Of a stretch of DNA of 64,000 bases, positions 23,954 through 57,908 are shown piece after piece. Source of the DNA: a virus. The first letter of the stretch is position 1; the number at the start of each line of letters is the position of its first letter. The stretch covers positions 1-64,000 of the IMG/VR virus record IMGVR_UViG_3300000117_000009; one strand, 5' to 3'. Under the pieces are notes generated by a model. It was not told where the DNA came from. It was given only the letters and a program-made list of their open reading frames with translations, and ran no database searches. The position numbers and the translations under genes are program-made.

Positions 23954-24042
23954 GGTATCACAATTGGTGATCAAAACAAATTAAAAAAATAACAAATAAC
24001 CAATTAAACATTTAAATAAATACTATGAAAGGTATTAAACAT

Positions 24043-28916: not shown

Positions 28917-29394
28917 CATTTGTTTAATGGAGAGTTTAAGGTTTTCTTTAAAAGTAAATAATATCAATGTAAAAGATTACATTCCTGCATATAATGGAGA
29001 GAGTGCTGGTCTTGATTTGTTTAACGCCGGTGATAGAATAGTGATTTTACCACAATCAGTTGTTCCTAAAAATAATAAAATTCTTATTGGGACAGGATTG
29101 AAAATGAAAGTTCCAAAAGGATATGTAGCTTTAGTGCAAGAAAGAGGATCAATTACAAAAACCCCTCTAAAAGTAAGAGCAGGAGTTATTGACAGTGGTT
29201 ATACAGGTGAAGTTTTTGTTAATTTAATTAACACGGGCTCTGAAGAATATACACTTGATTCTAATGTCAAACTACCAGTCCAGGTTGTAGTTGTTAAATG
29301 TGATAACGAGTTTGAAATTGTTAGCGAAGAAGAATATTTAAACTTGTCTCGAAATTCTTCAAGAAAAGATGGAAAAGTCGGTAGTTCAGACTAA
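28909..29394 (+). CDS. dut: Trimeric dUTPase
   Basis: A 161-residue enzyme that turns dUTP into dUMP and pyrophosphate, feeding thymidylate synthesis and keeping uracil out of DNA. The five motifs are visible: SAGLDLFN (1), VQERGSITK (2), AGVIDSGYTGEVFVNLIN (3), VQVVVVK (4) and a C-terminal Gly/Ser-rich arm with SSRKDGKVGSS (5). The start at 28909 overlaps the helicase stop and has AGAGG 12 bases away; Met7 is an alternative without a visible ribosome site. A second, unrelated dUTPase-type gene lies at 36861. Confidence 0.93.
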   Translation: MIDICLMESLRFSLKVNNINVKDYIPAYNGESAGLDLFNAGDRIVILPQSVVPKNNKILIGTGLKMKVPKGYVALVQERGSITKTPLKVRAGVIDSGYTGEVFVNLINTGSEEYTLDSNVKLPVQVVVVKCDNEFEIVSEEEYLNLSRNSSRKDGKVGSSD

Positions 29395-29409
29395 AACAAG
29401 GAAATTAAT

Positions 29410-31215
29410 ATGAAAAAAGAATGCTGTGGCATTACTATAGATTTAGGTTACGATAATAATTTAACAGACTTTTCAAAGAAACTTCTTCATGACTACTATA
29501 TGCAAGATCATGAGGAGTCTCCACAAGAAAGTTTTGCTCGTGCTGCAGTAGCATTTTCTTATAACAGCGTAGATCAATCATACGACTTGAGCTTAGCACA
29601 AAGAATATATGATTATGCAGCTAAAGGCTGGTTCATGTTTAGCTCACCAATTTTATCTAATGCCCCTTCACCAGGAGAAACAGAACTTGGTTTACCTATA
29701 TCTTGCTTTTTAACATATGTTGACGATTCCCTAGAAGGATTAATATCCCATTCAGATGAATTGAGATGGATGAGTGTTAAAGGTGGCGGTGTAGGTGGTC
29801 ACTGGAGTTCCATTAGATCAAATAGTAGTATTTCTCCAGGTCCTGTGCCTTTTCTTAAAACAGTTGACAGTGATATGACTGCATATCGTCAAGGTAAAAC
29901 TAGAAAAGGATCATATGCAGCTTATATGGATGTTTCTCATCCTGACATTGTAGAGTTTCTAAGCATCAGACTACCAACAGGTGGTGATGTTAATCGTAAG
30001 TGTTTTAACATTAACAATGCAGTAAATGTTACAGACGAATTTATGGAAGCAGTATCTAAAGGCGATGTCTGGAATTTAATTGATCCTAATGACGGATCTA
30101 TAAGAGATACAATTAGTGCTAGAGAACTGTGGCAAAGAATATTAAAAATAAGATTTAGGACAGGTGAGCCTTACATTAATTTCATTGATGAAGCAAATAG
30201 ACATCTACCACAGTTTCAAAAAGATTTAAATCTTAAAATACACGGATCAAATCTTTGCAACGAAATTCATTTGGCAACATCGCCAGATAGAAGTGCTGTT
30301 TGTTGTTTAAGTTCTTTAAACATTGAAAAGTTTGACGAATGGGAAAATACAGCTATTGTAGAAGACTTAATAGAATACCTTGACAATGTTTTACAGTTTT
30401 TTATAGACAAAGCTCCTGTTCATTTAAATAGAGCAATTAAGTCTGCAAAGCTAGAAAGAAGTCTTGGATTGGGTGCTATGGGTTTCCACGCTTATCTTCA
30501 ATCAAAGAATATCCCGTTTGAATCTGGGATTGCTAAAGCTGCAAATATGAATATATTCTCACTTATACAAGAAAGAGCAAAACAGAAAACAGTGGAGTTG
30601 GCCAGATTAAAAGGAGAATGCCCAGATGCTAACGGGTATGGTGTTAGAAATTCTCATCTTTTGGCAATCGCGCCAAATGCAAATTCTTCAATTATTGCAG
30701 GCACTTCACCCTCTATTGAACCTTGGAAATCAAATGCGTATACTCATAGAACAAGAGTCGGCTCTTATCTTGTTAAAAATCCTCACTTAGAAAAAGTTTT
30801 GTTAGCATACTGTAATGATATTCCAGATGTTAAAAAGAGTGACTGGATTTCTGCACAGTGGAAATCAATCATTTTAACAGAAGGATCTGTTCAACATCTT
30901 GACTATATGTCAGATTGGCACAAACAAGTTTTCAAGACAGCGTTCGAGCTAGATCAGCGATGGATAGTTGATCACGCAGGAGATAGACAAGAGTTTATTT
31001 GTCAAGGTCAGAGTGTTAACTTGTTTTTTCCTGCAGGAACAGAAAAATCTTATGTTAATGCAGTTCATTTAAGAGCTTGGAAAAAGAAGCTAAAAGGTTT
31101 ATACTATCTTAGAACAAATTCAGGTGCTTCAGCAGAAAAAGTAAGTCAAAAAGTAGAGCAGAATAAGCTACAAGACTTCACTGATCCTGATGAGTGTTTG
31201 AGCTGTCAAGGATAA
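29410..31215 (+). CDS. nrdA: Class I ribonucleotide reductase, large subunit
   Basis: A 601-residue catalytic subunit that reduces ribonucleotides to deoxyribonucleotides. Cys in GLPISCFLTYVDDS and Cys in SAVCCLSSLN match the redox pair, and GSNLCNEIHLA carries the Asn-x-Cys-x-Glu catalytic group. The C-terminal DECLSCQG is the mobile CxxC that is recharged by thioredoxin. At 601 residues against about 760 in E. coli it lacks the N-terminal ATP-cone, so overall dATP inhibition is likely lost, as in many phage enzymes. AAGGAA precedes the ATG, and the small subunit and a thioredoxin follow. Confidence 0.95.
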   Translation: MKKECCGITIDLGYDNNLTDFSKKLLHDYYMQDHEESPQESFARAAVAFSYNSVDQSYDLSLAQRIYDYAAKGWFMFSSPILSNAPSPGETELGLPISCFLTYVDDSLEGLISHSDELRWMSVKGGGVGGHWSSIRSNSSISPGPVPFLKTVDSDMTAYRQGKTRKGSYAAYMDVSHPDIVEFLSIRLPTGGDVNRKCFNINNAVNVTDEFMEAVSKGDVWNLIDPNDGSIRDTISARELWQRILKIRFRTGEPYINFIDEANRHLPQFQKDLNLKIHGSNLCNEIHLATSPDRSAVCCLSSLNIEKFDEWENTAIVEDLIEYLDNVLQFFIDKAPVHLNRAIKSAKLERSLGLGAMGFHAYLQSKNIPFESGIAKAANMNIFSLIQERAKQKTVELARLKGECPDANGYGVRNSHLLAIAPNANSSIIAGTSPSIEPWKSNAYTHRTRVGSYLVKNPHLEKVLLAYCNDIPDVKKSDWISAQWKSIILTEGSVQHLDYMSDWHKQVFKTAFELDQRWIVDHAGDRQEFICQGQSVNLFFPAGTEKSYVNAVHLRAWKKKLKGLYYLRTNSGASAEKVSQKVEQNKLQDFTDPDECLSCQG

Positions 31216-31247
31216 TTATTATACAAGGATTATACAAAGGTTAAACA

Positions 31248-32216
31248 ATGTCTTTATTAAAATACAATACAACTTATAAGCCCTTTAAATACGCATGGGC
31301 AATGGAAATAGCTGAATCTCACGAAAAGATTCACTGGGGTAGCTGGGAAGCAAAACTACAAGAAGACGTAAATCAGTGGAAAGGTGGAAAAATCCCTGTT
31401 AAAGAGAAGAATCACATTACACAAATTCTTCGATTATTTACACAAAGTGATGTTCAAGTAGGCGGCAACTATTGTGATTTGTTTATTCCTAAGTTTAAGA
31501 ATAATGAAATTAGGAGTATGCTATTAAGCTTTGCAAATCGTGAAGGTACACATCAACGTAGTTATGCGCTTCTTAATGATACACTAGGATTACCTGAAGA
31601 AGAGTACAGTGCTTTTCTAGAGTATAAAGAAATGTCTGACAAGATTGAATTTATGCAAAAAAACGATGTATCAACAAGAAAAGGCTTAGGTTTAGCGTTA
31701 GCACAATCTGCGTGTAACGAAGGAATGAGTCTATTTTCAGCTTTTGTTATGCTACTTAATTACCAACGATACGGAAAGATGAAAGGAATGTGTGAGATTG
31801 TTGAATGGTCAATTAGAGACGAGACAATGCACGTTCAGGGTATGACACAATTGTTTAGAGAATATCTCAAAGAACACCCAAGAGTTGTTAATGATGATTT
31901 TAAAAAATCAATATACAAAATGTATAGAGAAGCTGTTAAACTTGAAGACAAAGTTATTGACTTAGCATACGAAATGGGTGACATTGAAGGCCTAGACAAG
32001 AAAGAAGTCAAACAATATATAAGATATTTAGCTGATAGGCGACTAATACAGCTTGGTTTAAAACCTAATTTTAAAGTTAAACATAATCCGCTAGACTGGT
32101 TAGACTGGATTATTAATGGAGACAGTTTTAAAAACTTCTTCGAAGGTACTGTCACAGACTACAATGCTGATGGCATGAGTGGCGACAGTTGGGGTTGGGA
32201 AAATATTAAAGATTAA
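31248..32216 (+). CDS. nrdB: Class I ribonucleotide reductase, small subunit
   Basis: A 322-residue diiron-radical subunit. Ligand groups are visible: QSDVQVGGNY with the first acid, REGTHQRSYALL with Glu, His and the radical Tyr in the usual spacing, then a Glu-containing helix (QSACNEGMSLFSAFVM) and WSIRDETMHVQGM with Glu and His. The C-terminal tail ends in WGWENIKD, the part that docks to the large subunit. It follows the large-subunit gene by 32 bases and precedes thioredoxin by eight, forming a full reductase unit. The presence of the radical Tyr suggests class Ia chemistry. Confidence 0.95.
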   Translation: MSLLKYNTTYKPFKYAWAMEIAESHEKIHWGSWEAKLQEDVNQWKGGKIPVKEKNHITQILRLFTQSDVQVGGNYCDLFIPKFKNNEIRSMLLSFANREGTHQRSYALLNDTLGLPEEEYSAFLEYKEMSDKIEFMQKNDVSTRKGLGLALAQSACNEGMSLFSAFVMLLNYQRYGKMKGMCEIVEWSIRDETMHVQGMTQLFREYLKEHPRVVNDDFKKSIYKMYREAVKLEDKVIDLAYEMGDIEGLDKKEVKQYIRYLADRRLIQLGLKPNFKVKHNPLDWLDWIINGDSFKNFFEGTVTDYNADGMSGDSWGWENIKD

Positions 32217-35498: not shown

Positions 35499-35528
35499 TG
35501 TGTAAATTTCATATATTTGTCATATAAT
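35499..35528 (+). promoter_or_regulatory. Early-type promoter for the first ThyX gene
   Basis: TGTGTAAA at 35499-35506, 16 bases, then TATAAT at 35523-35528. AAAAGG follows 24 bases before the ThyX ATG, so the expected RNA start leaves room for a ribosome site. Confidence 0.72.
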
Positions 35529-35552: not shown

Positions 35553-36266
35553 ATGACAAATATACACTATCTTTATGACGACAATATAGGTAAAGTTGAA
35601 TTGGTCCAACATATGGGCGAAGACATAACAGTTGTTAACTCTGCTAGAGTATCTTTTGGAGTGCAAAAAGACAATCTAGATATAAAAGATCAGAAACTAA
35701 TTAACTATTTAATTAAGCATAGACACACTTCTACGTTAGAACATAATATTGCAACATTTAGAATTAAAGTGCCGCTATTCGTAAGGTCACAACATCATAG
35801 ACACAGAACATGGTCTTATAATGAAATAAGTAGAAGATATACTGATTCTGATATTAAGTTTTATGAGCCCGTTAGATTTAGAACACAACATAAAAGTAAC
35901 AGACAGGCTTCAAATCTAGAAGACACAATTAATCCTTTAATTAACTATAAAACAGACTATAGCTCACAACTTTATAAAAAAACAGCTTCAGACGCTATTT
36001 GTGATCACCATAAAATCTCACTCAAGCTTTTTGATGACCTATTAGCTTCAGGTATTTGTAGAGAGCAAGCTAGAGGCATTTTACCACAGAATCTCTATAC
36101 AGAATATTATGCAACGGCTAATTTAAATAATATACTAAAGTTTATTAATTTAAGATCACATGAAGGTGCACAGTGGGAAATACAAAGACTATCTGATAGC
36201 ATGTTATCTATTGTAAAAGAACTTTGGCCTGTAACTGTTAATAGTTTTATTAATAACCATAAATAG
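35553..36266 (+). CDS. thyX: Flavin-dependent thymidylate synthase
   Basis: A 237-residue enzyme that methylates dUMP to dTMP with methylene-tetrahydrofolate, FAD and NADPH. The ThyX signature RHRTWSYNEISRRYT is complete (family pattern RHRxxSxNExSxRY). TSTLEHNIATFRIKVPLFVR precedes it as usual, and CREQARGILPQNLYTEYYAT supplies the conserved Arg that binds dUMP. HEGAQWEIQRL fits the last substrate-binding helix. It has its own promoter. A second, diverged homolog lies at 37335. Confidence 0.95.
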   Translation: MTNIHYLYDDNIGKVELVQHMGEDITVVNSARVSFGVQKDNLDIKDQKLINYLIKHRHTSTLEHNIATFRIKVPLFVRSQHHRHRTWSYNEISRRYTDSDIKFYEPVRFRTQHKSNRQASNLEDTINPLINYKTDYSSQLYKKTASDAICDHHKISLKLFDDLLASGICREQARGILPQNLYTEYYATANLNNILKFINLRSHEGAQWEIQRLSDSMLSIVKELWPVTVNSFINNHK

Positions 36267-36297
36267 ACAATAATTACTATGTTTAGAAGGAGTCAAC

Positions 36298-36660
36298 ATG
36301 AAAACAAAAATTCTCTTAGAAAGACATAATGATTTAGTTAATACTCTTATAAGATGTCGTATAAAAATTGAAGATCGAGAAGATCCAACCGTCTTAGATA
36401 TAATGACAGATATGAGAGCATTACCAGGAGTTGTAACTGTTAGACAGACAAGACCCATATCAGACACGGTTACGTCTTACGGACACAGACTAATAGAGCT
36501 TAATGTGTCTTATATTCCTGCTTTTATTGAAGATAGTGATCCTTTTATGACAATGATCAGATCTTTAAAAAAAGTTGAAGGTATTGATATGATTAAGGTA
36601 ATGGAACACGACGAACAATCAATTAATGTAAAAATACAGAAAACACCACTAATTATTTGA
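36298..36660 (+). CDS. Conserved small phage protein, unknown
   Basis: A 120-residue protein with a good ribosome site (AAGGAG). Its centre reads LDIMTDMRALPGVVTVRQ, then a strand-rich part and IRSLKKVEGIDMIKVM. The pattern of two similar strand-helix halves suggests a ferredoxin-like or ACT-like fold, but that is inference. I have a general sense that this family recurs in marine myoviruses, without a known role. It follows ThyX by 31 bases. Confidence 0.55.
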   Translation: MKTKILLERHNDLVNTLIRCRIKIEDREDPTVLDIMTDMRALPGVVTVRQTRPISDTVTSYGHRLIELNVSYIPAFIEDSDPFMTMIRSLKKVEGIDMIKVMEHDEQSINVKIQKTPLII

Positions 36661-36670
36661 AAGGAAAAAA

Positions 36671-36895
36671 ATGAATTTAAACGATACAACAATTGCGCAA
36701 ATTGTTAGACTGATACAGATGGCACTTCTTACTGGAACTGATATTGTTGATCACTTAAGAATGTTAATGCTAGAAGTAGATGAAAACCAAAAGCTAGTAA
36801 TTAATAGTGAGTACGAAAGAGTCTTTAATGAGTCACTTGAAAAAATGATGTCTAATATAAGTGAAAGAGAAAGTGAACCTGTTGCAAAAGACTAG
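36671..36895 (+). CDS. Small conserved helical protein, unknown
   Basis: A 74-residue protein with GAAAGGA before its ATG. It is helical, with AQIVRLIQMALLTGTDIVDHL as its clearest stretch, and an acidic C-terminus. No motif points to a function. The next gene begins inside its last codons. Confidence 0.55.
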   Translation: MNLNDTTIAQIVRLIQMALLTGTDIVDHLRMLMLEVDENQKLVINSEYERVFNESLEKMMSNISERESEPVAKD

Positions 36896-37268
36896 CTTAG
36901 ATAAACTTGATATTCTCTTTGATAAAAGAGAGACTTTTATGGAACTTATCAAGAAAAAATACCCAGACTCATACAAAGATTGGCCTTTAGACATTTCAGA
37001 GAAAAGTAGTCAAGTTTTACTTAGAGACACTGCGCTCAAAGGCGTCGAAGAAATGTTTGAAGCACTAGGACATTTAAAGAACTGGAAGCCTCATAGAGAT
37101 ACTGATATGCCTGAGATTGATAGAGAAGAATTCTTAGAAGAAATAGTTGATGCCTTTAATTACTTCTTTTCTTTAATAATTTTAATGGGTGTTGATGTTA
37201 ATGAATTTTATAATGCTTTTAATAAAAAAGACGAGATAATAAGAAATAGAATTAAAAGCAACTATTGA
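36861..37268 (+). CDS. Dimeric dUTPase-2 / MazG-like nucleotide pyrophosphohydrolase
   Basis: Up to 135 residues from a GTG at 36861; a TTG at 36882 is an equally good start, and both overlap the previous gene. The all-alpha NTP pyrophosphatase pattern is visible: GVEEMFEALGHLKNWKPHRD (ExxE helix with a Lys-Trp following) and EEFLEEIVDAFNYFFSLIIL (ExxD metal site), then KKDEIIRNRIKSNY near the C-terminus, as in dimeric dUTPases. It would remove pyrophosphate from dUTP or dCTP. It lies between the two ThyX-family genes, which fits a dUMP-supply role. Confidence 0.78.
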   Translation: MKEKVNLLQKTSLDKLDILFDKRETFMELIKKKYPDSYKDWPLDISEKSSQVLLRDTALKGVEEMFEALGHLKNWKPHRDTDMPEIDREEFLEEIVDAFNYFFSLIILMGVDVNEFYNAFNKKDEIIRNRIKSNY

Positions 37269-37276
37269 TTTATTTA

Positions 37277-37306
37277 CGTGTAAATATTAAATTTATAAAT
37301 TATAAT
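37277..37306 (+). promoter_or_regulatory. Early-type promoter for the second ThyX-family gene
   Basis: CGTGTAAA at 37277-37284 (one mismatch to the family), 16 bases, then TATAAT at 37301-37306, 28 bases before the TTG start. AAAGGAG follows as ribosome site. Confidence 0.7.
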
Positions 37307-37334
37307 AAATTGGTAATAATAAAGGAGATAAATT

Positions 37335-38306
37335 TTGCCAATTAATAATGATCTTAAACAAGTCACTCTTCCAATGGAACTTAAGTTTGACCAAGTTCCT
37401 GTAACTAACTACATTAACAATCTAGAATCACTTAACATTGAACTAATTGATGGCCCTACTAGAGAACAAGCACAAAAAATTGCTTGGCACATGACAAAAG
37501 CAACATGGGCTGATACGCCTGCAGAAACTGCATTTGAAAACTCTACACCTGAAGAGGCTTCTCTTAATCTTCAAGATGTTCTTAATTTTAGAGCTCTTCC
37601 GACGCCGATGGAATGTTTAGGTTTTACTTTTAAAATTAGCGGAATTGATACACAAACAGTAACACATTTAATTAGACATAGAGCAGGTTCTTTTGCAGCA
37701 CAATGTACTGGCGATAGAGACCTTAGAAACGATAATGTTTTAGTTCCTGAGTCTGTTGAAAATTCAGACTTTCATCATCGATTTATTGAAGTTGCTGCTG
37801 CAGCAAAACAACTTTATTCTGATATGGTTGACTCACGTGCTGTATCACTTATGGACGCAAGAGTTATTCTACCTAAAGCATTAGAAACTTTTTATGTTGC
37901 AAGATTTAATCTTAAAGACTTAATTGGTTTTATTCGTCAACGTCAAGATGTACAAATTCAGCCAGAAGTAGACAATATTATTGCAACTCGTATTGCAAAA
38001 ATTGTTTGTACATCAATTCCTGAAGTTTCTACTTGCTTAAACTTTGAAAAACCAGACATGCATTATGTTCGAACTTTCCGTGTTGAATTACCTGACGGTA
38101 CATTTACATCTCGTGGAACAAATCTTTATTATCCAGAGCCTAAAAACGACTTGTTTGAGTTTAACGAAAAAGACGCTATTTATTCATGTCGTCGTGAAGA
38201 AATTAATGGAAACAAGAAAGGTGAAGAAAAAATCTTTACTAGAATGTGGAACGATGATGTTAAAGCTGTAAGACAAATTAGACAAAATTTAGACAGCGAG
38301 TTTTAA
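37335..38306 (+). CDS. Divergent ThyX-family protein, altered signature
   Basis: A 323-residue protein from a TTG start with GGAG before it. ThyX order is clear: LIRHRAGSFAAQCTGDRDLR sits where ThyX has RHRxxSxNExSxRY; the two Arg and the Ser are kept, but Asn-Glu is replaced and the end differs. DARVILPKALETFYVARFN keeps the dUMP-binding Arg, and FIRQRQDVQIQPEVDNI matches the last helix. The N-terminus is longer by about 50 residues than ThyX and the C-terminus by about 80. A change of substrate or transferred group is possible, such as hydroxymethylation, but is inference. With a normal ThyX one kilobase away, simple redundancy is unlikely. Confidence 0.75.
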   Translation: MPINNDLKQVTLPMELKFDQVPVTNYINNLESLNIELIDGPTREQAQKIAWHMTKATWADTPAETAFENSTPEEASLNLQDVLNFRALPTPMECLGFTFKISGIDTQTVTHLIRHRAGSFAAQCTGDRDLRNDNVLVPESVENSDFHHRFIEVAAAAKQLYSDMVDSRAVSLMDARVILPKALETFYVARFNLKDLIGFIRQRQDVQIQPEVDNIIATRIAKIVCTSIPEVSTCLNFEKPDMHYVRTFRVELPDGTFTSRGTNLYYPEPKNDLFEFNEKDAIYSCRREEINGNKKGEEKIFTRMWNDDVKAVRQIRQNLDSEF

Positions 38307-38334: not shown

Positions 38335-38364
38335 TGTGTAAAACAATTAAAAACATGGTAATTT
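38335..38364 (+). promoter_or_regulatory. Early-type promoter before the deoxyribosyltransferase-like gene
   Basis: TGTGTAAA at 38335-38342, 16 bases, then TAATTT at 38359-38364, a weak -10 box. AAAAGGA precedes the ATG at 38386. Confidence 0.5.
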
Positions 38365-38385: not shown

Positions 38386-38835
38386 ATGAAAAAGATTTAT
38401 CTTGCAAGTGGTTGGTTTAATCCAGTTCAAGCAGAAGAACTTACTAATTTAGAGAATATTTTTGATGCAAGATCTGATCATTTTGATCTTGCATCACCTA
38501 GAAGAATTTTTGTTTGTCCTCCTAATGCGCCAAAGGAAGTTCAGGATGAAACTTTTACTGGTAACTTGCACCATATTGAAACAGCAGACTTTTTACTAGT
38601 TAATACTCGCGACAAAGATATTGGCACAATTTGGGAGGCTGGCTATGCATTTGCATTTAAAAAGCCAATTATCTATTTTTGCGCAGGTCTTCCAGAAGGT
38701 GCTAAATTTAATCTTATGTTAGCAAGAAGTGGTATTAAGGTCTGCACATCTTTTGAGCAGCTTGAAGAATACTTGGATAGAGTAATATCTACAGGCGAGC
38801 TACCTAATGAACCTTATGCAGCCGCAATTGAATAA
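38386..38835 (+). CDS. Nucleoside 2-deoxyribosyltransferase-like protein
   Basis: A 149-residue protein of the Rossmann-like NDT family, which moves deoxyribose between bases or hydrolyses (deoxy)nucleoside monophosphates. KIYLASGWFNPVQ at the start matches the family's first strand and loop, HIETADFLLVN matches the Asp-containing strand, and DKDIGTIWEAGYAFA matches DxGTxxExGxA with the Glu nucleophile. It is close to both ThyX-family genes, the MazG-like gene and dUTPase functions, so base salvage or removal of an unwanted nucleotide is likely. Confidence 0.8.
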   Translation: MKKIYLASGWFNPVQAEELTNLENIFDARSDHFDLASPRRIFVCPPNAPKEVQDETFTGNLHHIETADFLLVNTRDKDIGTIWEAGYAFAFKKPIIYFCAGLPEGAKFNLMLARSGIKVCTSFEQLEEYLDRVISTGELPNEPYAAAIE

Positions 38836-39319: not shown

Positions 39320-40138
39320 TTGCCAGAAGGACCTGAAGTAAAACTTTTTACTGAAAGACTTAATCAAAATTTTCGATATTACATGATTAAGTCTGTTGAA
39401 GTGCTAAGTGGTAGATACATTAAAAAGCCAATACAAAATCTAGAAGCACTAAACGGAAAAGAAATCAAAAGCTTTAATTGTAAAGGAAAGTTTATCTGGT
39501 TTGATTTAGACGATGTAATTGTTTTTAATACTTTAGGAATGACAGGCAGCTGGTCTAGACACAAAACAAAACATTCAAGAATAGCAATTAAATTTTACGA
39601 AAATGATACCGTATACTTTAACGATACAAGAAGCTTTGGTACGTTTCAGATTAAGTCTAGACAAGAACTTTCAAAAAAGTTAAAAAGCTTAGGCCCCGAT
39701 ATGTTGTCTAAGCCACCTGATACTGCAGAATTTATTCCTATATTTAGAAAGAAAAACAACAAAGACATATGCAGTGTTTTAATGAATCAAAACATTATTT
39801 CTGGAGTTGGCAATTATATCAAGGCTGAGTCTTTGTGGTATTCTAAAATTAATCCTCATGCTTTGATAAAAGATTTAACAGACGAAAATTTAGAAACTCT
39901 TAGGAAAGCAATATTGTTTGTTGTAAATAAGTCGTATCAAGAACAAGGTGCTTCAATAAAAGACTATTATACGTTTGATGAAGAAGAAGGCACAGCGACT
40001 GCTGGCTTTGTTGTGTACGGTAAGTCTAAAGATTACAACGGCCACAATGTAATAAAAGAGGAAACACTTGATAAGAGAGCAACTCATTGGGTTAAAGAAA
40101 GACAGATTTATGGAGTTAATCGACCTAAAACCAGGTGA
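39320..40138 (+). CDS. Fpg/Nei-family DNA glycosylase without zinc-finger cysteines
   Basis: A 272-residue base-excision enzyme that removes oxidised bases and cuts the abasic site. The start is TTG, fixed by the invariant N-terminus MPEGPEV in which Pro2 is the nucleophile and Glu3 is catalytic. GKFIWFDL carries the conserved Lys, and GVGNYIKAESLW the DNA-contact Asn. The C-terminal hairpin keeps the Arg in DKRATHWVKERQ, but all four zinc Cys are replaced, giving a zincless finger as in NEIL1. It may protect phage DNA from oxidation or remove modified bases. Confidence 0.9.
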   Translation: MPEGPEVKLFTERLNQNFRYYMIKSVEVLSGRYIKKPIQNLEALNGKEIKSFNCKGKFIWFDLDDVIVFNTLGMTGSWSRHKTKHSRIAIKFYENDTVYFNDTRSFGTFQIKSRQELSKKLKSLGPDMLSKPPDTAEFIPIFRKKNNKDICSVLMNQNIISGVGNYIKAESLWYSKINPHALIKDLTDENLETLRKAILFVVNKSYQEQGASIKDYYTFDEEEGTATAGFVVYGKSKDYNGHNVIKEETLDKRATHWVKERQIYGVNRPKTR

Positions 40139-41104: not shown

Positions 41105-41353
41105 ATGTCATCTTACTCAAAAGGATTAGAAGTTTCTGATCTCGTAACATTTATGCACAAAATTTTTAATAACCAATTTTCAGGCCCACGCACTGCGCTA
41201 GTCTTAAATAGAGAATATCTTTTTGAAAACAAAACAGAATATGGCATTAAAAAGTTTTTTGACTATAAAATGCTAGATACACAAAGTAACAAAGTATATA
41301 ACGTTAAAACAAGAGACATAAAAGTCGTTAAAATTTTAAAAGGAAGCAATTAA
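41105..41353 (+). CDS. Small protein, unknown
   Basis: An 82-residue protein with AAGGA before its ATG. LEVSDLVTFMHKIFNNQFSG and RTALVLNREYLF suggest an SH3-like strand arrangement similar to other small genes here. Its stop overlaps the epimerase start by one base. Confidence 0.5.
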   Translation: MSSYSKGLEVSDLVTFMHKIFNNQFSGPRTALVLNREYLFENKTEYGIKKFFDYKMLDTQSNKVYNVKTRDIKVVKILKGSN

Positions 41354-42339
41354 TGAGAATAGGCATCACTGGTGAAAAAGGTTTTATTGCAACTAACTTG
41401 TCGAAAGAAATTATCAATCAAGGGCATGAATTTGTATCTATTGATAAGTCAGATTACGCTAAGACTCTGATGATATACACAGAAACTGATGAAGTCTGCG
41501 TATATTCTAATAATGCTGAATCCTGGATTCAATTGTTTAAAAGCCTAAATCTTGACTGCATTGTGCATAATGCAGCTGTTGTGGGAACTGATGTTGTTGC
41601 TTTAAATCCTGAGCATTCTATCAACACGAATATTTTAGGCACACAGACAATTGTTGAAGCTGCAAATAGTTGTGACATGCTAATTGTATACACAGGCACA
41701 ACAGTTATTTATGACACGTATAAGTATCAAGAATTTGATATTTTTGAAAATAGTGAAATATTCCCCAGGACAAATTATGCTGTCCAGAAATACGCTGGTG
41801 AGATGCTAGTAAGGAATAATGCAAAAGAGTGGCTTGTTACACGACCTTTATTTGCTTACGGCGGCATTGGTGATATGAACTCTTTAATTGCGAAGTCTTT
41901 ATTTGGCGTTAAAAATGGAATAGAAAACATTGACATATTTTTAGATCCACAAAAAATTAAAGATTATATGCATGTAGAGGACTTTTGTAATAGTGTTGTA
42001 AGGCTAATCGACTCTAGTGTTAGAAATGAAGACTTTAACATTACAGCTAGCAATCCACATAATACTTTAGAAATAGTTTCTATTATAGAAGAAGTTACCG
42101 GTTCAACCTTGGAAATTGTAGTTAAGTGGCACCCAGAAACAGACTATCTAGGAAATCATAGACTGTCTAATCAAAAGTTTGTTGACTTTATGGGCTTTGC
42201 AAATGTTCGAACACTCAGGGAAGGCATTAATCAGTCATGGCAGTCAATAAAAGATGCGAGTGAAAGTTACAATCCCTTAAAATACTTAGATCAAGCTAAG
42301 GCTCAAGATGTCGACTTAAAACAATTTTTTCCTAAGTAG
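41353..42339 (+). CDS. NAD-dependent epimerase/dehydratase-like protein
   Basis: A 328-residue extended short-chain dehydrogenase. The N-terminal GITGEKGFIAT fits the GxxGxxG nucleotide loop, IVHNAAVVG the third strand, YTGTTVIYD the Ser/Thr region, and NYAVQKYAGE the YxxxK catalytic pair. RPLFAYGGIG and DYMHVEDFC are typical of nucleotide-sugar enzymes. It could make a sugar for DNA glycosylation or for the host surface; no glycosyltransferase is visible in this window, so the product is unknown. Confidence 0.85.
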   Translation: MRIGITGEKGFIATNLSKEIINQGHEFVSIDKSDYAKTLMIYTETDEVCVYSNNAESWIQLFKSLNLDCIVHNAAVVGTDVVALNPEHSINTNILGTQTIVEAANSCDMLIVYTGTTVIYDTYKYQEFDIFENSEIFPRTNYAVQKYAGEMLVRNNAKEWLVTRPLFAYGGIGDMNSLIAKSLFGVKNGIENIDIFLDPQKIKDYMHVEDFCNSVVRLIDSSVRNEDFNITASNPHNTLEIVSIIEEVTGSTLEIVVKWHPETDYLGNHRLSNQKFVDFMGFANVRTLREGINQSWQSIKDASESYNPLKYLDQAKAQDVDLKQFFPK

Positions 42340-49555: not shown

Positions 49556-49577
49556 TATAAACCTTGTTGTATCTTTT

Positions 49578-49641
49578 ATGTGTAAATATAAATATAATGT
49601 TGATATAATAAATAAAAACAAGAAAGGTATATAATTTGTCT
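49578..49641 (+). repeat. 64-bp direct repeat, copy A (promoter region)
   Basis: Matches copy B at 50613-50676 over 64 bases with two mismatches. It carries the whole early promoter, a ribosome site (AAGAAAGG) and TTGTCT, the first two codons of the polymerase III gene in copy B. Here the frame stops after 13 codons (49636-49674), so it is a remnant start. Confidence 0.92.
49579..49609 (+). promoter_or_regulatory. Early-type promoter in repeat copy A
   Basis: TGTGTAAA at 49579-49586, 17 bases, then TATAAT at 49604-49609, pointing right. Its transcript would run antisense through the 49684-50589 gene toward polymerase III. A TATAAATA box (49587-49594) lies within the spacer. Confidence 0.65.
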
Positions 49642-50612: not shown

Positions 50613-50676
50613 ATGTGTAAATATAAATATAATATTGTTATAATAAATAAAAACAAGAAAGGTATATAATTTGTCT
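50613..50676 (+). repeat. 64-bp direct repeat, copy B (promoter region)
   Basis: Second copy of the repeat at 49578-49641, two mismatches. It ends inside the first two codons of the polymerase III gene and is the working copy. Confidence 0.92.
50614..50644 (+). promoter_or_regulatory. Early-type promoter for polymerase III alpha
   Basis: TGTGTAAA at 50614-50621, 17 bases, then TATAAT at 50639-50644, 26 bases before the TTG start. AAGAAAGG follows as ribosome site. Confidence 0.7.
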
Positions 50677-53600
50677 ATTGATTTAATAACTCCACCAGAC
50701 AGGTTTGTTTCTCTTCATTCACACTCAACTTTTAGCACTTTTGATGGATTAGGATACCCATCAGATCATATAGACTTTGTTCTTTCTGAATCTCAAGGAA
50801 TGGATGCCTGGGGACTAACAGATCATGGCAATGGTAACGGTCTTGCTCATGCACATTCTCATGCTGTTAAAATGCAAAAGGCAGGCAAAAACTTTCGTCA
50901 AGTTTACGGTGTAGAGTTTTATTTTGTCCCCTCACTAGATCAATGGACTGATGATTATGCTGCACATCGTCAAGCTATTAAAGACGCAAAGACAGCTGCT
51001 GCTGCTGAAAAGAAAGGCAAAGAAAATATTGTCATTGACGCTGATGATGAAAGTGGCGGACTAGTTATAGAGGACGAAGATGAATCTAAAAAAATCGACA
51101 TTCTCAAAGACGAGTGGAAACGCCGATACCACTTAGTCATCACAGCAAGAAACAGAAAAGGCCTTAATAATCTATTTACACTTGTAAAGAAGTCGTATAA
51201 AGACGGATTCTATAGATACCCACGTGTTGACTTTAAAATGATTAAAGAACATGGAGAAGGCCTTCATATATCAACTGCATGTTTAGGCGGCATCTACAGC
51301 AACCGTATTCTTCGCGGTGTTGCACATGACAAATCACGTGACGAAATTCAAAAAGATCTACAAAACCTATCAGACAGATTTACAGACGCTGTTGGTATTG
51401 AAAACTTTAAATTAGAACTACAATTCAATAAGCTTAATAAACAGCATGTTGTTAATGACTACCTCATAGAACATCACAAACTAACTGGCATTCCTCTTAT
51501 TTCAACAGCAGATTCTCACTACCCGAGTAATGATAAGTGGCAAGCGAGAGAGTTGTATAAGAAGCTTGGATGGTTAGGCAAGAAGGATGGCATGACGCTA
51601 CCTGCTTTTGAAGATCTTAAGTGTGAGTTGTATCCTAAGAATGCTCAACAAATGTGGGATGAATTCTTAGAAGGCTATAAAGAACACGACTTCTACAAAG
51701 GGAATGAGCAACTTGTTAAAGAGTCGATAGAAAGAACACACGACATTGTCTGGAATGACTTTGAAGATACTTGGATAGATGTAAGTGCTAAACTCCCAAC
51801 AATATCAATACCTAACAAGACACCTTTCAAACACCTGTCAGATCTAGTTAAGAATGCTTTGGTTAGCGAAGGGTTGCATACTAATAAAGAGTATGTAGAT
51901 AGAGCTAAGTATGAATTGTCTGACATTAAGTATCTTGGGCACGAAGCTTACTTCATTACAATGTATGAGATCTTTAAAAAAGCAGAAACAAAGACATTAT
52001 TTGGGCCTGCGCGCGGGAGTGGCGGAGGCTCGTTAGTTAACTACTTATTAGGCATTACACAGCTTGACCCTATTCCTTATAACTTGCTTTGGAGTAGATT
52101 TTTAGGTAGGCATCGTGTTTCTTGGCCTGATATTGACACAGACGCTGGTGATCGAGATGAACTCATCAATGCAGCAAAGGAATTGTATGGCGATGATGCT
52201 GTTATTCCAGTATCAAACTTTAATACGCTTAAACTTAAATCACTTGTAAAAGACATTGCAAAGTTTTATGATATTCCGTTTGACGAAGTAAACAAAGTAA
52301 CTGGGCCTCTTCAAGATCAAGTTATGCAAAAAGCAATGGACAAGAATCAAGAAAAGTCTGTATTCGTTCTTAAACATGAAGACTGTATGAAATACTCACC
52401 AGAGTATAATGAATTTATGACAGAATATCCTGAGGTCGCTGAACATGTTGAGACTTTGTTTATGCAGAATAGAGCTATCGGTAGACACGCAGGCGGTGTA
52501 ATAATAGCTGATGCTGATTCTCTTGCAGAGTCAATGCCAATTGTTGGTGTTCGTGGAGAACTACAAACTCCCTGGACAGAAGGCATGAACTTTAGAAATC
52601 TTGAAGATAATGGTTTTCTTAAGTTTGATTTCTTAGGCTTAACATTGCTTAAAGACGTAGAAAACTGCATCTATAGGATTCTCAAAAAGCAAGGAAATAA
52701 TAATCCTACATTCACAGATGCAAGAGCATTCTTTGATAAACATTTAAACTGTAGGTTTGTTAAACAAAATGATCCTAAAGTTTGGGAACATGTATACAAA
52801 GACGGAAAGTTTTGTGGAATATTTCAATTTACAGCGCCTGGTGCTAGAAACTTTGCAAAGGAAGCAGAACCTGATTCTATTGAAGAACTAGCAGCTTTAA
52901 CAGCTATATACAGACCCGGTCCACTTAAAGCAAATGTGCATAAGAAGTATGTTAAAGCAAAAAGAAACGCTTCAGAAATTAAGTATGATCACCCTATTAT
53001 TGAAAAGATATTAGGGCCTACGTTTAACTACGTAGTTTTTCAAGAGCAGTTTATGCTACTAGCACAGGAGCTAAGTGGATTTGACCCAGGCGAAGCTGAT
53101 AAGCTTAGAAAAACTCTGGTTAAGAAGTCACTAGATACACTTCATTCTAAAGGTTCAGAAAAAGCAATTGCTAGAGAAAAGTTTATCAAGGGTGCTAAAG
53201 AATTAAACGATGTTCCGGAGTCAGTATCATCTAAGTTATGGGAAGACATAGAAAATTTTGCTGTTTACGGCTTTAACAAGTCTCACGCAGTTGCATATGC
53301 TATTGGTTCATATTACGCAGCTTGGTTGCATACGCATCACGAGACTGAGTGGCTGGCTGCAATATTACAGTCTGAAAATGGTAATCCTAAAGGCATGTCA
53401 AAAGCCATTTCAGAGATTAAGTCGTTTGGGTATGAGATTGCTGCAATAGATATAAATCACTCTGAAGCAGAATGGGAATATTCTGAAGTGTTGAAAGCTT
53501 TTGTTCCGCCACTAACATCGCTCAAAGGAGTAGGAGATAAAGCTGTTGAAGAAGTATTTGCGAATAGACCATACAAAAATTTAAATACTCTATTTTATGA

Positions 53601-54246
53601 TGCAGAAGGAGTATGGAAACATTCCAAGTTAAACAAGACAGCTTTTTCTTCGCTAGCGAAGATGGAAGCATTTAAGTCTCTTGACGAGTTTAAAACTGAC
53701 GAATTGGATAATCACAAGCAACTCCATGATTTAATACTTGATAACTATACTACTCTCAAGAAAGGTTATTGGGGAATGACAAAAACTGCAGTAAAAAGAG
53801 CAAAAAAGAATCAAGAAGAAATTGTTCCAATTGTTGAAGATTTATTGACAAAGTATCGAGTTGTTTCTGACTGGAATAGATCAGAAAAAATTAGGAATTA
53901 TTTTGATCTCAGCAATGATGCAAGTGACGACCTCCTGTTTCCACCAAGTTTAATTAAAAAGTTAAACGACAAGCAAATCAACAGCGTCTTTGATATACCT
54001 GCAGGTGAAAGAGGAATTGGCTGGTTTACAGTGACAGAAGTTATTCATAAGACAACAAAAAACAACAAGGCGTTTATGCGATGGAAGTGTGTTGACTCAG
54101 ATAATCGTAGCGGATGGTTAAGAGTTTGGGGTAGTGTTGAAGATGGTGTTGAGTTTAGTACATGGCTTGCTGACGTAAAGAATGATGCTGGATGGGGTAT
54201 GTCATCTACACTTGCTAAACTTAAAAAGATTAATGCGTTTGATTAA
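50671..54246 (+). CDS. dnaE: DNA polymerase III alpha subunit (family C, DnaE-type) with PHP domain
   Basis: A 1191-residue replicative polymerase, about the length of bacterial DnaE. The start is TTG with AAAGG upstream. The N-terminal PHP domain keeps its metal residues: LHSHSTFSTFDG (His16, His18, Asp25), LTDHGN, YGVEFYF, YHLVITARN, STACLGG and TADSHYP. The palm carries GPARGSGGGSLVNYLLGI and the catalytic PDIDTD (Asp487, Asp489, with Asp491). The fingers include RAIGRHAGGVIIA, and YGFNKSHAVAYA is family-typical. The C-terminal part has an OB fold (GWFTVTEVIHKTTKNNKAFM). An acidic insertion at about residues 110-145 breaks the PHP domain. No sliding clamp or loader is seen in the window. 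Confidence 0.95.
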   Translation: MSIDLITPPDRFVSLHSHSTFSTFDGLGYPSDHIDFVLSESQGMDAWGLTDHGNGNGLAHAHSHAVKMQKAGKNFRQVYGVEFYFVPSLDQWTDDYAAHRQAIKDAKTAAAAEKKGKENIVIDADDESGGLVIEDEDESKKIDILKDEWKRRYHLVITARNRKGLNNLFTLVKKSYKDGFYRYPRVDFKMIKEHGEGLHISTACLGGIYSNRILRGVAHDKSRDEIQKDLQNLSDRFTDAVGIENFKLELQFNKLNKQHVVNDYLIEHHKLTGIPLISTADSHYPSNDKWQARELYKKLGWLGKKDGMTLPAFEDLKCELYPKNAQQMWDEFLEGYKEHDFYKGNEQLVKESIERTHDIVWNDFEDTWIDVSAKLPTISIPNKTPFKHLSDLVKNALVSEGLHTNKEYVDRAKYELSDIKYLGHEAYFITMYEIFKKAETKTLFGPARGSGGGSLVNYLLGITQLDPIPYNLLWSRFLGRHRVSWPDIDTDAGDRDELINAAKELYGDDAVIPVSNFNTLKLKSLVKDIAKFYDIPFDEVNKVTGPLQDQVMQKAMDKNQEKSVFVLKHEDCMKYSPEYNEFMTEYPEVAEHVETLFMQNRAIGRHAGGVIIADADSLAESMPIVGVRGELQTPWTEGMNFRNLEDNGFLKFDFLGLTLLKDVENCIYRILKKQGNNNPTFTDARAFFDKHLNCRFVKQNDPKVWEHVYKDGKFCGIFQFTAPGARNFAKEAEPDSIEELAALTAIYRPGPLKANVHKKYVKAKRNASEIKYDHPIIEKILGPTFNYVVFQEQFMLLAQELSGFDPGEADKLRKTLVKKSLDTLHSKGSEKAIAREKFIKGAKELNDVPESVSSKLWEDIENFAVYGFNKSHAVAYAIGSYYAAWLHTHHETEWLAAILQSENGNPKGMSKAISEIKSFGYEIAAIDINHSEAEWEYSEVLKAFVPPLTSLKGVGDKAVEEVFANRPYKNLNTLFYDAEGVWKHSKLNKTAFSSLAKMEAFKSLDEFKTDELDNHKQLHDLILDNYTTLKKGYWGMTKTAVKRAKKNQEEIVPIVEDLLTKYRVVSDWNRSEKIRNYFDLSNDASDDLLFPPSLIKKLNDKQINSVFDIPAGERGIGWFTVTEVIHKTTKNNKAFMRWKCVDSDNRSGWLRVWGSVEDGVEFSTWLADVKNDAGWGMSSTLAKLKKINAFD

Positions 54247-54652: not shown

Positions 54653-55543
54653 ATGAGATTTTTCAATATTAATATCGAAGGCCCTGATTGCAGTGGCAAA
54701 ACAACTTTATACAGTCAGCTGCACAAAGAAACTAATTTTAAATATAACATTCAAGACAGAAGTTGTATGTCTATGTTTGTTTATGCAAAGATGTATGGAA
54801 GAGAAGATGCATCACTTTGGTTTGATAAAATTTTAGACGACCTTAAGCGACTAGACACACTTTACATACTTCTTTTACCTTCAGAAAAAACAATTCTTAA
54901 TAGACTACAAAAAAGAGGCGATGATTTTCAAGATAAAGACAGCATTTTAAAAGTAAGAAGTTATTTTAGAAATATTGCAAAAATGGGTTTTGGTTCCTAT
55001 CCTAACGTTTTAGTTTTAGAAGAAGATGATTTAGAAACAAATATAAACAAAACATTACAGTTTATAAACGCTCTAAACGAAATGCCTGGTCAAGAACTAA
55101 TCAAGTCTTTAGTGTTTAGCAGTGGTAGAAATGAATTGATTGATGTACAATGTAAAGAAGAAGTTAATAGAAATCATTTGGATTTAACTGTATTAGACTT
55201 TCCTCAAGAAAAAGAGTATTACGAAAAAATTGAGTTTGAGTTTTTTAATAAAATTTTTAGAGAGTTTGTTGGACTAAACGAACGCAATCAAGCACAAAAG
55301 CATGATAGCAGAAGATTTATCTATACTAGTGATAGTTGTATATCAATGATTCACGTTTTATGGCGCCAAAATAAATTAAATGTATTGGCAACCCTAAGAT
55401 CTTCAAACGTATCAAAAACTTTATGGGCTGATTATGAATTTCTTAAGATACTTAGTGTTAAAACTGCCAAAGAAATGTCTTTACCTGAAGATTGTGTTAT
55501 AAAACTTACAGTTGATATTCGATCGGCACATATAGTACCTTAG
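54653..55543 (+). CDS. Fusion of dNMP-kinase-like P-loop domain and thymidylate-synthase-like domain
   Basis: A 296-residue protein. Residues 1-145 are a thymidylate-kinase-like P-loop domain: INIEGPDCSGKTTLYSQL, then LYILLLPSEKTILNRLQKRG as the lid-like region. Residues about 165-296 resemble the C-terminal core of thymidylate synthase: ISMIHVLWRQNKLNVLATLR, then SSNVSKTLWADYEFLKIL, and IKLTVDIRSAHI, which lines up with the family's RSxD and DxHxY segments. The catalytic Cys of thymidylate synthase is not visible, so this half may only bind nucleotide. It sits directly before thymidine kinase. A role in phosphorylating a normal or modified pyrimidine nucleotide is inferred. Confidence 0.6.
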   Translation: MRFFNINIEGPDCSGKTTLYSQLHKETNFKYNIQDRSCMSMFVYAKMYGREDASLWFDKILDDLKRLDTLYILLLPSEKTILNRLQKRGDDFQDKDSILKVRSYFRNIAKMGFGSYPNVLVLEEDDLETNINKTLQFINALNEMPGQELIKSLVFSSGRNELIDVQCKEEVNRNHLDLTVLDFPQEKEYYEKIEFEFFNKIFREFVGLNERNQAQKHDSRRFIYTSDSCISMIHVLWRQNKLNVLATLRSSNVSKTLWADYEFLKILSVKTAKEMSLPEDCVIKLTVDIRSAHIVP

Positions 55544-55552
55544 AGAATTTTT

Positions 55553-56125
55553 ATGAACCCACAATTTATAATTTATACTGGCCCGATGTTTGGGTCAAAA
55601 ACAACAAGATTAATGTCTGATATCGATCGATCCTTATATAAAGGTCGTAAAGTAATAGCTTTCAAAGCTAAAAAAGACAATAGATATACAAAAGAAACAA
55701 TTAGTACACATACTGGTGCAACATATCCAGCATTTTGCATAAACCATGCTGAAGAGATATTGTGTTATGTAAACGAAGACATACATAATTCAAACACAAT
55801 AGTCGCTGTTGACGAAGCTTTTATGATTCAGGATATTGACTCTGTTTTGATTTCTTTATATCGTAAAGGTGTTAATATAATTGTGTCATCAATTCAATTA
55901 GACGCAAACGAGATACCTTTTGAGAACATAAAAAACATGATGCCTTGGGCGACAAAAATCGAAATTTGTCCAGCTGTCTGTACGATCTGTGACCAGGATG
56001 CATATTTTACAGAAGCTATGTTTGATATTAACAGTGCAACACAAGAAGAAAGAATTGGCTCGTTTGGAATGTATGAGCCAAGATGTGCAACCCACTACAC
56101 TAGTTTTAGAGAGACTAAAGATTGA
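55553..56125 (+). CDS. tdk: Thymidine kinase (TK1 type)
   Basis: A 190-residue kinase that phosphorylates thymidine to dTMP. The P-loop is YTGPMFGSKTTRLM, VAVDEAFMI carries the Asp-Glu that binds magnesium, and a zinc site is formed by CTICDQDAYF and PRCATH near the C-terminus. It sits between the kinase-TS fusion and the ART-like gene with nine bases and a four-base overlap, so all three are one transcript. It completes thymidine salvage beside ThyX. Confidence 0.93.
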   Translation: MNPQFIIYTGPMFGSKTTRLMSDIDRSLYKGRKVIAFKAKKDNRYTKETISTHTGATYPAFCINHAEEILCYVNEDIHNSNTIVAVDEAFMIQDIDSVLISLYRKGVNIIVSSIQLDANEIPFENIKNMMPWATKIEICPAVCTICDQDAYFTEAMFDINSATQEERIGSFGMYEPRCATHYTSFRETKD

Positions 56126-57488: not shown

Positions 57489-57908
57489 ATGGTAGATATA
57501 AATAGGCCTTCATGGGACAAAATTTGGATGCAAATGGCAGAAACTATTGCTCAACGTAGCCATCACCCAACTTTTAAAGTAGGTGCACTTATAGTAACGT
57601 CAGATAATACGCAAGTTCTTTCCTTAGGATATAATGGTCGCGCAGCAGGAATGTCAAACGTACCTCAATCTGATGAACCTGGGTGTAGTGGTTTATTGCA
57701 TGCTGAAATTAATGCGTTGCTTAAACTTGACTATAATAATCCTAAAGATAAGGTAATGTACATTACACTAAGCCCTTGCGAAAATTGTGCAATGGCAATT
57801 ATAAATAGCGGCATAAAAAAAGTAGTGTACAAAGATGAGTATAGAGACATGTCAGGTGTAGATTTATTGAGAAAAGCAAATATTACTGTTAATAATATAT
57901 ATTTATAG
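57489..57908 (+). CDS. dCMP deaminase
   Basis: A 139-residue zinc deaminase that turns dCMP into dUMP for thymidylate synthesis. The active site is LLHAEINALL (His and catalytic Glu) and LSPCENCAMAI (two zinc Cys). FKVGALIV and NGRAAGMSN match the family. GGAG precedes the ATG. It diverges from the HAD gene with only 19 bases between the start codons. Confidence 0.93.
   Translation: MVDINRPSWDKIWMQMAETIAQRSHHPTFKVGALIVTSDNTQVLSLGYNGRAAGMSNVPQSDEPGCSGLLHAEINALLKLDYNNPKDKVMYITLSPCENCAMAIINSGIKKVVYKDEYRDMSGVDLLRKANITVNNIYL

What the first reader, a model, noticed from the sequence alone, without database searches (positions are those of the whole stretch)
35553..38306. Two ThyX-family proteins, one with a changed signature
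A normal ThyX (RHRTWSYNEISRRYT) and a homolog with RHRAGSFAAQCTGDRD in the same place are one kilobase apart, each with its own early promoter. The second keeps the dUMP-binding Arg but not the Asn-Glu and has long extensions. A different one-carbon product or a different acceptor is possible, such as a modified uracil.
Basis: partly seen in the sequence, partly recalled or inferred. Interest (0 to 1): 0.75.

Follow-up and report, generated by a model that had tools for sequence, protein, structure and literature searches.

The report
Rebuilt ThyX-like enzyme with deoxyribosyltransferase partner
A marine phage carries, beside an ordinary thymidylate-making enzyme, a second, strongly conserved relative whose substrate-gripping loop has been rebuilt and which is almost always encoded next to a base-swapping enzyme, suggesting that these phages make an unusual DNA building block; this has not been tested at the bench.

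Summary
ThyX1 (35553-36266) is an ordinary flavin-dependent thymidylate synthase. ThyX2 (37335-38306) belongs to the same Pfam family but falls below the curated thymidylate-synthase cut-off. It keeps the RHR flavin motif and two nucleotide-binding arginines. The canonical NE-S-R-Y loop is replaced by QCTGDR, which 127 of 128 distinct relatives retain. The gene is under strong purifying selection (dN/dS about 0.05), so it is a working enzyme and not a relic. It travels with a MazG-like pyrophosphohydrolase and with either an NT5C or a YfbR/DatZ-like 5'-nucleotidase, never both. Bacillus phage SP-15, whose DNA contains a hypermodified uracil, encodes a parallel set: canonical ThyX, divergent ThyX, NDT and YfbR. 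Best reading: a cassette that makes a modified pyrimidine deoxynucleotide for DNA and removes the normal competitor. Uracil versus cytosine and the exact product are unresolved. The main rival is ordinary pyrimidine supply. Geobacillus phage GR1 encodes the same enzyme and partners and is a cultured phage, so the claim can be tested by LC-MS.

The parts
35500..35528 (+). promoter-like box GTGTAAA-N16-TATAAT before ThyX1
   Evidence: 7 such boxes in the window vs 0.32 expected
35553..36266 (+). ThyX1, canonical flavin-dependent thymidylate synthase
   Evidence: PF02511 2.8e-46; TIGR02170 169.6 bits, above cut-off 87.9
36861..37268 (+). MazG-like all-alpha nucleotide pyrophosphohydrolase (GTG start as listed)
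   Evidence: phrog_12184 1.4e-16; weak PF08761; near ThyX2 in 27 of 33 clusters
37278..37306 (+). promoter-like box GTGTAAA-N16-TATAAT before ThyX2
   Evidence: same box in 52 of 56 relatives
37335..38306 (+). ThyX2, divergent Thy1-family enzyme, 323 aa
   Evidence: PF02511 2e-19; TIGR02170 53.4 bits, below cut-off; AF2 pLDDT 92.4, ThyX fold
37674..37718 (+). codons of the motif RHRAGSFAAQCTGDR (residues 114-128)
   Evidence: QCTGDR in 127 of 128 distinct relatives
38336..38364 (+). promoter-like box GTGTAAA-N16-TAATTT before the NDT gene
38386..38835 (+). NDT-family nucleoside 2-deoxyribosyltransferase, partner of ThyX2; nucleophile Glu84 by alignment
   Evidence: PF05014 3.8e-12; phrog_7995 1.6e-27; Foldseek top hit 6evs; adjacent to ThyX2 in 76 of 80 loci
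39320..40138 (+). Fpg/Nei-like DNA glycosylase, recurrent neighbour
   Evidence: PF01149 1e-19; 11 of 33 clusters
41353..42339 (+). nucleotide-sugar epimerase-like protein, recurrent neighbour
   Evidence: phrog_540 1e-43; 14 of 33 clusters
50615..50644 (+). promoter-like box before the Pol III gene
50671..54246 (+). family-C DNA polymerase (PHP + Pol III alpha), recurrent neighbour
   Evidence: PF07733 2.1e-53; 15 of 33 clusters within 10 kb
54653..55543 (+). dNK/TMPK-like kinase
   Evidence: phrog_761 5.8e-18
55553..56125 (+). thymidine kinase-like
   Evidence: PF00265 3.8e-32
57489..57908 (+). dCMP deaminase-like
   Evidence: PF00383 7.8e-25

Best explanation
ThyX2 is a catalytically active, phage-specific member of the Thy1 fold whose flavin side is kept and whose nucleotide side has been rebuilt. 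It most likely uses the ThyX one-carbon chemistry (CH2-folate or formaldehyde, via reduced FAD) on a pyrimidine deoxynucleoside monophosphate to make something other than dTMP, most plausibly a 5-hydroxymethyl-type dUMP or dCMP. A kinase and the phage polymerase would then deliver it to phage DNA. The MazG-like enzyme (dNTP to dNMP), a 5'-nucleotidase (NT5C or YfbR/DatZ-like; dNMP to dN) and the NDT (exchange or removal of the base) would form the arm that drains the competing normal nucleotide, as MazZ, DatZ and DmtZ do in Z-genome phages. Shown: the sequences, family membership, fold, motif invariance, purifying selection, gene linkage, exclusive alternation of nucleotidases and the SP-15 parallel. 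Inferred: flavin use, the dNMP substrate, the product, its destination in DNA and the role of the NDT.
For: Invariant [QD]C[TS]GD[RK] loop in 128 distinct proteins and dN/dS about 0.05. The AF2 model (pLDDT 92.4) matches ThyX structures, with TM up to 0.77 on T. maritima; hhalign probability 95%. Kept by alignment: R78/H79/R80, the R147 equivalent (R176) and the R174 equivalent (R203), both invariant. Lost: H53, E86, S88, R90, Y91. In PolB and ThyX the loop residues among these bind the phosphate, read O4 or act as acids (PMC5003785; PMC8316439 and PMC11940539). NDT within 600 bp in 76 of 80 loci, in 31 of 33 clusters and on 34 of 35 long contigs; reciprocally 64 of 68 NDT loci carry a ThyX-like gene, the other 4 having the NDT at or near a contig end. 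MazG-like in 27 of 33 clusters. NT5C fusion and YfbR/HD never co-occur (23, 3 and 0 of 36 contigs). YfbR-like DatZ, MazZ and NDT-family DmtZ work in Z-DNA phages (PMC12884076). SP-15, with hypermodified uracil, has gp9 canonical Thy1, gp130 divergent Thy1, gp127 NDT and gp90 YfbR. GR1 carries ThyX2, NDT, a YfbR/DatZ-type HD protein and an alpha-glucosyltransferase. A shared promoter-like box links ThyX1, ThyX2, NDT and Pol III.
Against: No product, no modified base and no assay exist for any QCTGDR protein. SP-15 gp130 is of a different divergent type (no RHR, no QCTGDR), so the parallel is of module and not of orthologue. Sugar-transfer genes expected after hydroxymethylation were found only in the GR1 group (1 of 36 contigs). 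The window itself lacks the nucleotidase. ThyX1 still makes dTMP in 22 of 36 contigs, so thymine is not simply replaced. Haloarchaeal tailed viruses carry ThyX, NDT, MazG, 5'-nucleotidase and Tmk and were read as pyrimidine synthesis (PMC8651126).
Confidence: 0.5

Rival explanations
1. ThyX2 is just a second thymidylate synthase, and the NDT, MazG and nucleotidase are ordinary pyrimidine supply and salvage for fast phage DNA synthesis.
For: Both are Thy1 family. NDT, ThyX, MazG, 5'-nucleotidase and Tmk were described as pyrimidine metabolism in haloarchaeal viruses (PMC8651126). RNR, dUTPase, dCMP deaminase and TK are also in the window.
Against: 22 of 36 long contigs carry a good ThyX as well. 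ThyX2 lacks S88, R90 and Y91, whose alanine mutants are badly impaired. It fails the TIGR02170 cut-off. A pathway that degrades dNMPs beside a dTMP maker is wasteful.
Confidence: 0.2
2. ThyX2 has lost catalysis and serves as a structural, regulatory or decoy subunit, for example a mixed tetramer with ThyX1.
For: Loss of S88, R90, Y91 and H53 equivalents.
Against: RHR, R147 and R174 equivalents are kept, the new loop is invariant, and selection is strong. 14 of 36 contigs show no canonical ThyX, although contigs may be incomplete.
Confidence: 0.1
3. The ThyX2-NDT pair acts in phage-host conflict, for example removing or altering a host nucleotide signal or starving the host of a nucleotide, and not in phage DNA.
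For: NDT-like hydrolases destroy nucleotides (DNPH1 and MilB families, cited in PMC12884076). The cassette is phage-only in our searches.
Against: Shared promoter-like box with Pol III and a neighbourhood of DNA-precursor genes. No defence context was noticed.
Confidence: 0.1
4. ThyX2 acts at base or nucleoside level: the NDT supplies or consumes free bases and ThyX2 modifies a nucleoside, or attaches an amino acid- or amine-borne carbon as MnmEG does.
For: The NDT keeps the Asp that binds 5'-OH in deoxyribosyltransferases where DNPH1 has Ser. ThyX2 loses the R74 equivalent and SRP phosphate ligands.
Against: The phosphate-binding R147 equivalent (R176) is invariant and the PolB His83 equivalent (H111) is kept.
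Confidence: 0.1

Closest known systems
ThyX / flavin-dependent thymidylate synthase (TIGR02170, PF02511)
   Same: Fold, RHR motif, R147 and R174 equivalents, Pfam family
   Different: SRP loop QCTGDR instead of NExSxRY; H53 lost; conserved N- and C-terminal extensions; below TIGR02170 cut-off
SP-15 gp130 (proposed hydroxymethyluridylate synthase, PMC5977210) with gp127 NDT
   Same: Second, divergent Thy1 beside an NDT in a phage that also has a canonical Thy1 and a YfbR; fold match E 2.6e-5
   Different: gp130 lacks RHR and QCTGDR; its own clade with GXN1; gp127 appears to have two NDT domains; gp130 activity itself untested
PolB UMP/dUMP methylase (PMC5003785)
   Same: A Thy1-fold enzyme with shifted substrate choice
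   Different: PolB keeps NEESARY; ThyX2 does not; PolB is in an antibiotic pathway
Z-genome cassette PurZ/MazZ/DatZ/DmtZ (PMC12884076)
   Same: NDT-family enzyme plus dNTP pyrophosphohydrolase plus YfbR-like enzyme around a nucleotide-modifying enzyme
   Different: No PurZ; the maker is Thy1-like; nucleotidase often NT5C; polymerase family C
T4 td/gp42/gp56 logic (5-hydroxymethyl-dCMP; own knowledge, cf. PMC8670742)
   Same: Thymidylate synthase plus a paralogous pyrimidine hydroxymethylase plus a pyrophosphatase
   Different: T4 enzymes are ThyA-fold; here ThyX-fold, product unknown

Membership tests
ThyX thymidylate synthase | Pfam Thy1 above gathering score | tested here: met
   70.6 bits against 24.8
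ThyX thymidylate synthase | NCBIfam equivalog TIGR02170 above cut-off | tested here: not met
   53.4 bits against 87.9
ThyX thymidylate synthase | signature RHRxxSxNExSxRY | tested here: not met
   RHRAGSFAAQCTGD: RHR and first S kept, N-E, S88, R90, Y91 replaced
ThyX thymidylate synthase | R147 and R174 equivalents | tested here: met
   R176 and R203 invariant in 30 diverse sequences
ThyX thymidylate synthase | ThyX fold | tested here: met
   Foldseek to PDB E 1.8e-10, TM on target up to 0.77
ThyX thymidylate synthase | dUMP to dTMP activity, FAD | not testable with these tools
   needs purified protein
Nucleoside 2-deoxyribosyltransferase (NDT) | PF05014 and fold | tested here: met
   46.8 bits against 28.8; AF2 pLDDT 95, top PDB hits all NDTs, DNPH1 from rank 38
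Nucleoside 2-deoxyribosyltransferase (NDT) | Tyr, Asp (5'-OH site) and catalytic Glu | tested here: met
   Y5, D78, E84 invariant in 22 sequences; the Asp matching L. leichmannii D72 varies
Z-genome (2-aminoadenine) cassette | PurZ | tested here: not met
   the PurA-like protein fits purA (310.9 bits) better than PurZ (128.4 against cut-off 300); PurA in only 9 of 35 contigs
Base-modification cassette in phage DNA | modified base in virion DNA | not testable with these tools
   known for SP-15 only, from the literature

The most novel reading that the evidence does not exclude
A flavin-dependent pyrimidine dNMP (hydroxy)methylase of a new catalytic type is widespread in marine phages. The invariant loop Cys, at or next to the Ser88 position, and the Asp, at or next to the Arg90 position, would replace the uracil-specific chemistry. 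Asp could read the cytosine amino group, as N177D does in ThyA, and Cys could activate C6. Coupled to an NDT/nucleotidase drain, it would install a modified cytosine or uracil in phage DNA.
Probability: 0.3. Interest if true: 0.85.

Novelty: new variant of a known kind. Interest (0 to 1): 0.6.

Why it matters
It would extend DNA-base modification from the ThyA fold (T4, SPO1) to the ThyX fold in large marine phages. It links the 2018 proposal for SP-15 gp130, which no paper I found has tested, to a recurring gene module (ThyX-like, NDT, pyrophosphatase, nucleotidase). It also names a cultured phage, GR1, in which the question can be settled. It shows that genes annotated 'FAD-dependent thymidylate synthase' in these phages, including GR1's, may be misnamed.

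Tried and rejected
Z-genome idea: rejected, no PurZ. Recent duplication of ThyX1: rejected by the tree. Pseudogene: rejected by dN/dS and invariance. Cellular origin: two scans of 84,980 genomes gave one true hit, a MAG contig that also carries a Pol III. XP12 (5-methylcytosine) link: its accession guess was not held, and the XcP1 ThyX has a different loop. STSV1 ThyX is canonical-like. Standard sigma-70 and terminator scans gave nothing above chance. A ThyA alternative was found in only 1 of 35 contigs. Superposition on solved ThyX complexes was not possible because coordinates are not on hand, so the loop register stays open: Cys at 88 and Asp at 91 without a gap, or Thr at 88 and Asp at 90 with a one-residue insertion. 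Local model confidence is lowest there (pLDDT about 79).

Full report
WHAT IS THERE. The window is part of a 107,300-base virus record, with 31-36% G+C in this region. ThyX1 (35553-36266) and ThyX2 (37335-38306) are both Thy1 family, but only ThyX1 passes the thymidylate-synthase equivalog. They have no significant BLASTP similarity. In a maximum-likelihood tree they fall in separate groups (98/88 and 99/99), so ThyX2 is not a recent copy of ThyX1; long branches make the deeper order unsure.

A REAL, CONSERVED FAMILY. ThyX2 finds more than 100 relatives in viral contigs. Of 128 distinct sequences, 127 keep QCTGDR and one reads DCSGDK. Close pairs give dN 0.03-0.07 against dS 0.6-1.0. Two scans of 84,980 bacterial and archaeal genomes gave one true match, on a contig of an archaeal MAG that also carries NDT, YfbR and Pol III genes. 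The isolate with the best match in the phage collection is Geobacillus phage GR1, 42.6% identical over residues 1-287.

ANATOMY OF THE ENZYME. The AF2 model has pLDDT 92.4 and matches solved ThyX structures. Profile comparison agrees, probability 95%. Mapping onto T. maritima numbering: R78-H79-R80 are kept; R147 and R174 are kept and invariant (R176, R203); Q75 becomes His111, as in PolB His83; H53 becomes Leu88. The substrate-recognition loop N85-E86-x-S88-x-R90-Y91 becomes A-A-Q-C-T-G-D. In PolB the loop residues and R166' bind the phosphate, R98' reads O4 and R193 reads O2 (PMC5003785). In ThyX, S88 and Y91 are proposed to act as acids, and S88A, R90A and Y91A are badly impaired (PMC8316439; PMC11940539). 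So the flavin side and part of the nucleotide grip look intact, while the part that reads the base edge and assists carbon transfer is new. The exact loop register is uncertain by one residue.

THE PARTNERS. An NDT gene follows ThyX2 within 600 bp in 76 of 80 loci. Among 33 clusters at 80% identity, the NDT is near in 31, a MazG-like enzyme in 27, an NT5C-bearing fusion in 21, a YfbR/HD enzyme in 5 and Pol III in 15. NT5C and HD never occur together. On 35-36 long contigs: NDT 34 of 35, NT5C 23 of 36, YfbR 3 of 36, none with both. Starting from the NDT, 64 of 68 loci carry a ThyX-like gene, and in the other four the NDT lies at or near a contig end. Four of those 64 (L347, L349, L356, L363) carry another divergent ThyX with RGRxGWAY in place of RHR. 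In L179 the NDT is fused to a thymidylate kinase-like domain. The NDT model is closest to true deoxyribosyltransferases and keeps the Asp that DNPH1-type hydrolases replace with Ser. The window itself has MazG but no NT5C or YfbR; its close relative L001 has a MazG-HAD (NT5C-like) fusion next to ThyX2.

REGULATION. GTGTAAA-N15-17-TAWWWT occurs 7 times in the window against 0.32 expected, before ThyX1, ThyX2, NDT, Pol III and the gene at 24025. The box before ThyX2 is kept in 52 of 56 relatives. The cassette is therefore probably expressed with replication genes (inference).

PARALLELS. Bacillus phage SP-15, whose DNA carries dihydroxypentyluracil, has a canonical Thy1 (gp9) and a divergent Thy1 (gp130). 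Its authors proposed, without a test, that gp130 is the hydroxymethyluridylate synthase (PMC5977210). I find an NDT (gp127) three genes before gp130 and a YfbR (gp90). Streptococcus phage GXN1 has NDT, YfbR and a gp130 homologue (40% identity) in a row. In Z-DNA phages an NDT-family enzyme (DmtZ), YfbR-like DatZ and pyrophosphohydrolases drain the competing nucleotide (PMC12884076). The two HD proteins tested from ThyX2 loci best match the phrog named dATP triphosphohydrolase. GR1 also carries an alpha-glucosyltransferase-family gene in the cassette.

MECHANISM. Most likely the cassette makes a modified pyrimidine dNMP and removes its normal competitor. Uracil is favoured by the SP-15 parallel and by the pyrimidine 5'-nucleotidase. 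Cytosine is favoured by the coexistence with a working ThyX1, by T4 logic and by the new Asp and Cys in the loop. I put about 0.5 on 'modified pyrimidine for DNA', split roughly 0.28 uracil and 0.22 cytosine; 0.2 on ordinary thymidylate supply; 0.1 each on a dead subunit, a conflict role and base-level chemistry.

LIMITS. No modified base has been shown in any phage with this enzyme. The SP-15 enzyme is a different divergent type. Many loci are related, which is why clusters are counted. Contigs are often fragments.

Noticed in passing
L347 1512-2459; L349 3879-4877; L356 2113-3054; L363 2150-3112: A further divergent ThyX type with RGR(V/I)GWAY in place of RHR, also near the same kind of NDT.
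   Followed up: partly
KT624200 113729-116910 (L370) and PQ819873 around 29288-31631 (L296): SP-15 and Streptococcus phage GXN1 carry NDT genes beside a gp130-type Thy1; the NDT beside SP-15 gp130 is not mentioned in the SP-15 paper's main text.
   Followed up: partly
L084 11441-14916 (G000 95441-98916): IMPDH/GMP reductase-like, PurA-like and PurB-like genes in a row in the same phage; PurA in 9 of 35 relatives.
   Followed up: partly
window 55553-56125: Thymidine kinase with Walker A GPMFGSKTT instead of the usual FSGK order; relatives show GSK, GAK or GGK.
   Followed up: no
L083 8015-9652 (G000 72015-73652): A GroEL-like chaperonin, read by eye from the translation.
   Followed up: no
window 23925, 35500, 37278, 38336, 40911, 49580, 50615 and G000 101081, 102254: Phage promoter-like box GTGTAAA-N15-17-TAWWWT, strongly enriched.
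   Followed up: partly
L179 4551-5501; L217 2283-3233; L001 5003-5926: Fusions: thymidylate kinase-like with NDT; dUTPase_2/MazG-like with an NT5C or similar HAD domain.
   Followed up: yes
window 46790-49621 and L084 4775-10371: Large (about 920-945 aa) proteins, those in L084 in tandem and alike at their N-termini, function unknown.
   Followed up: no
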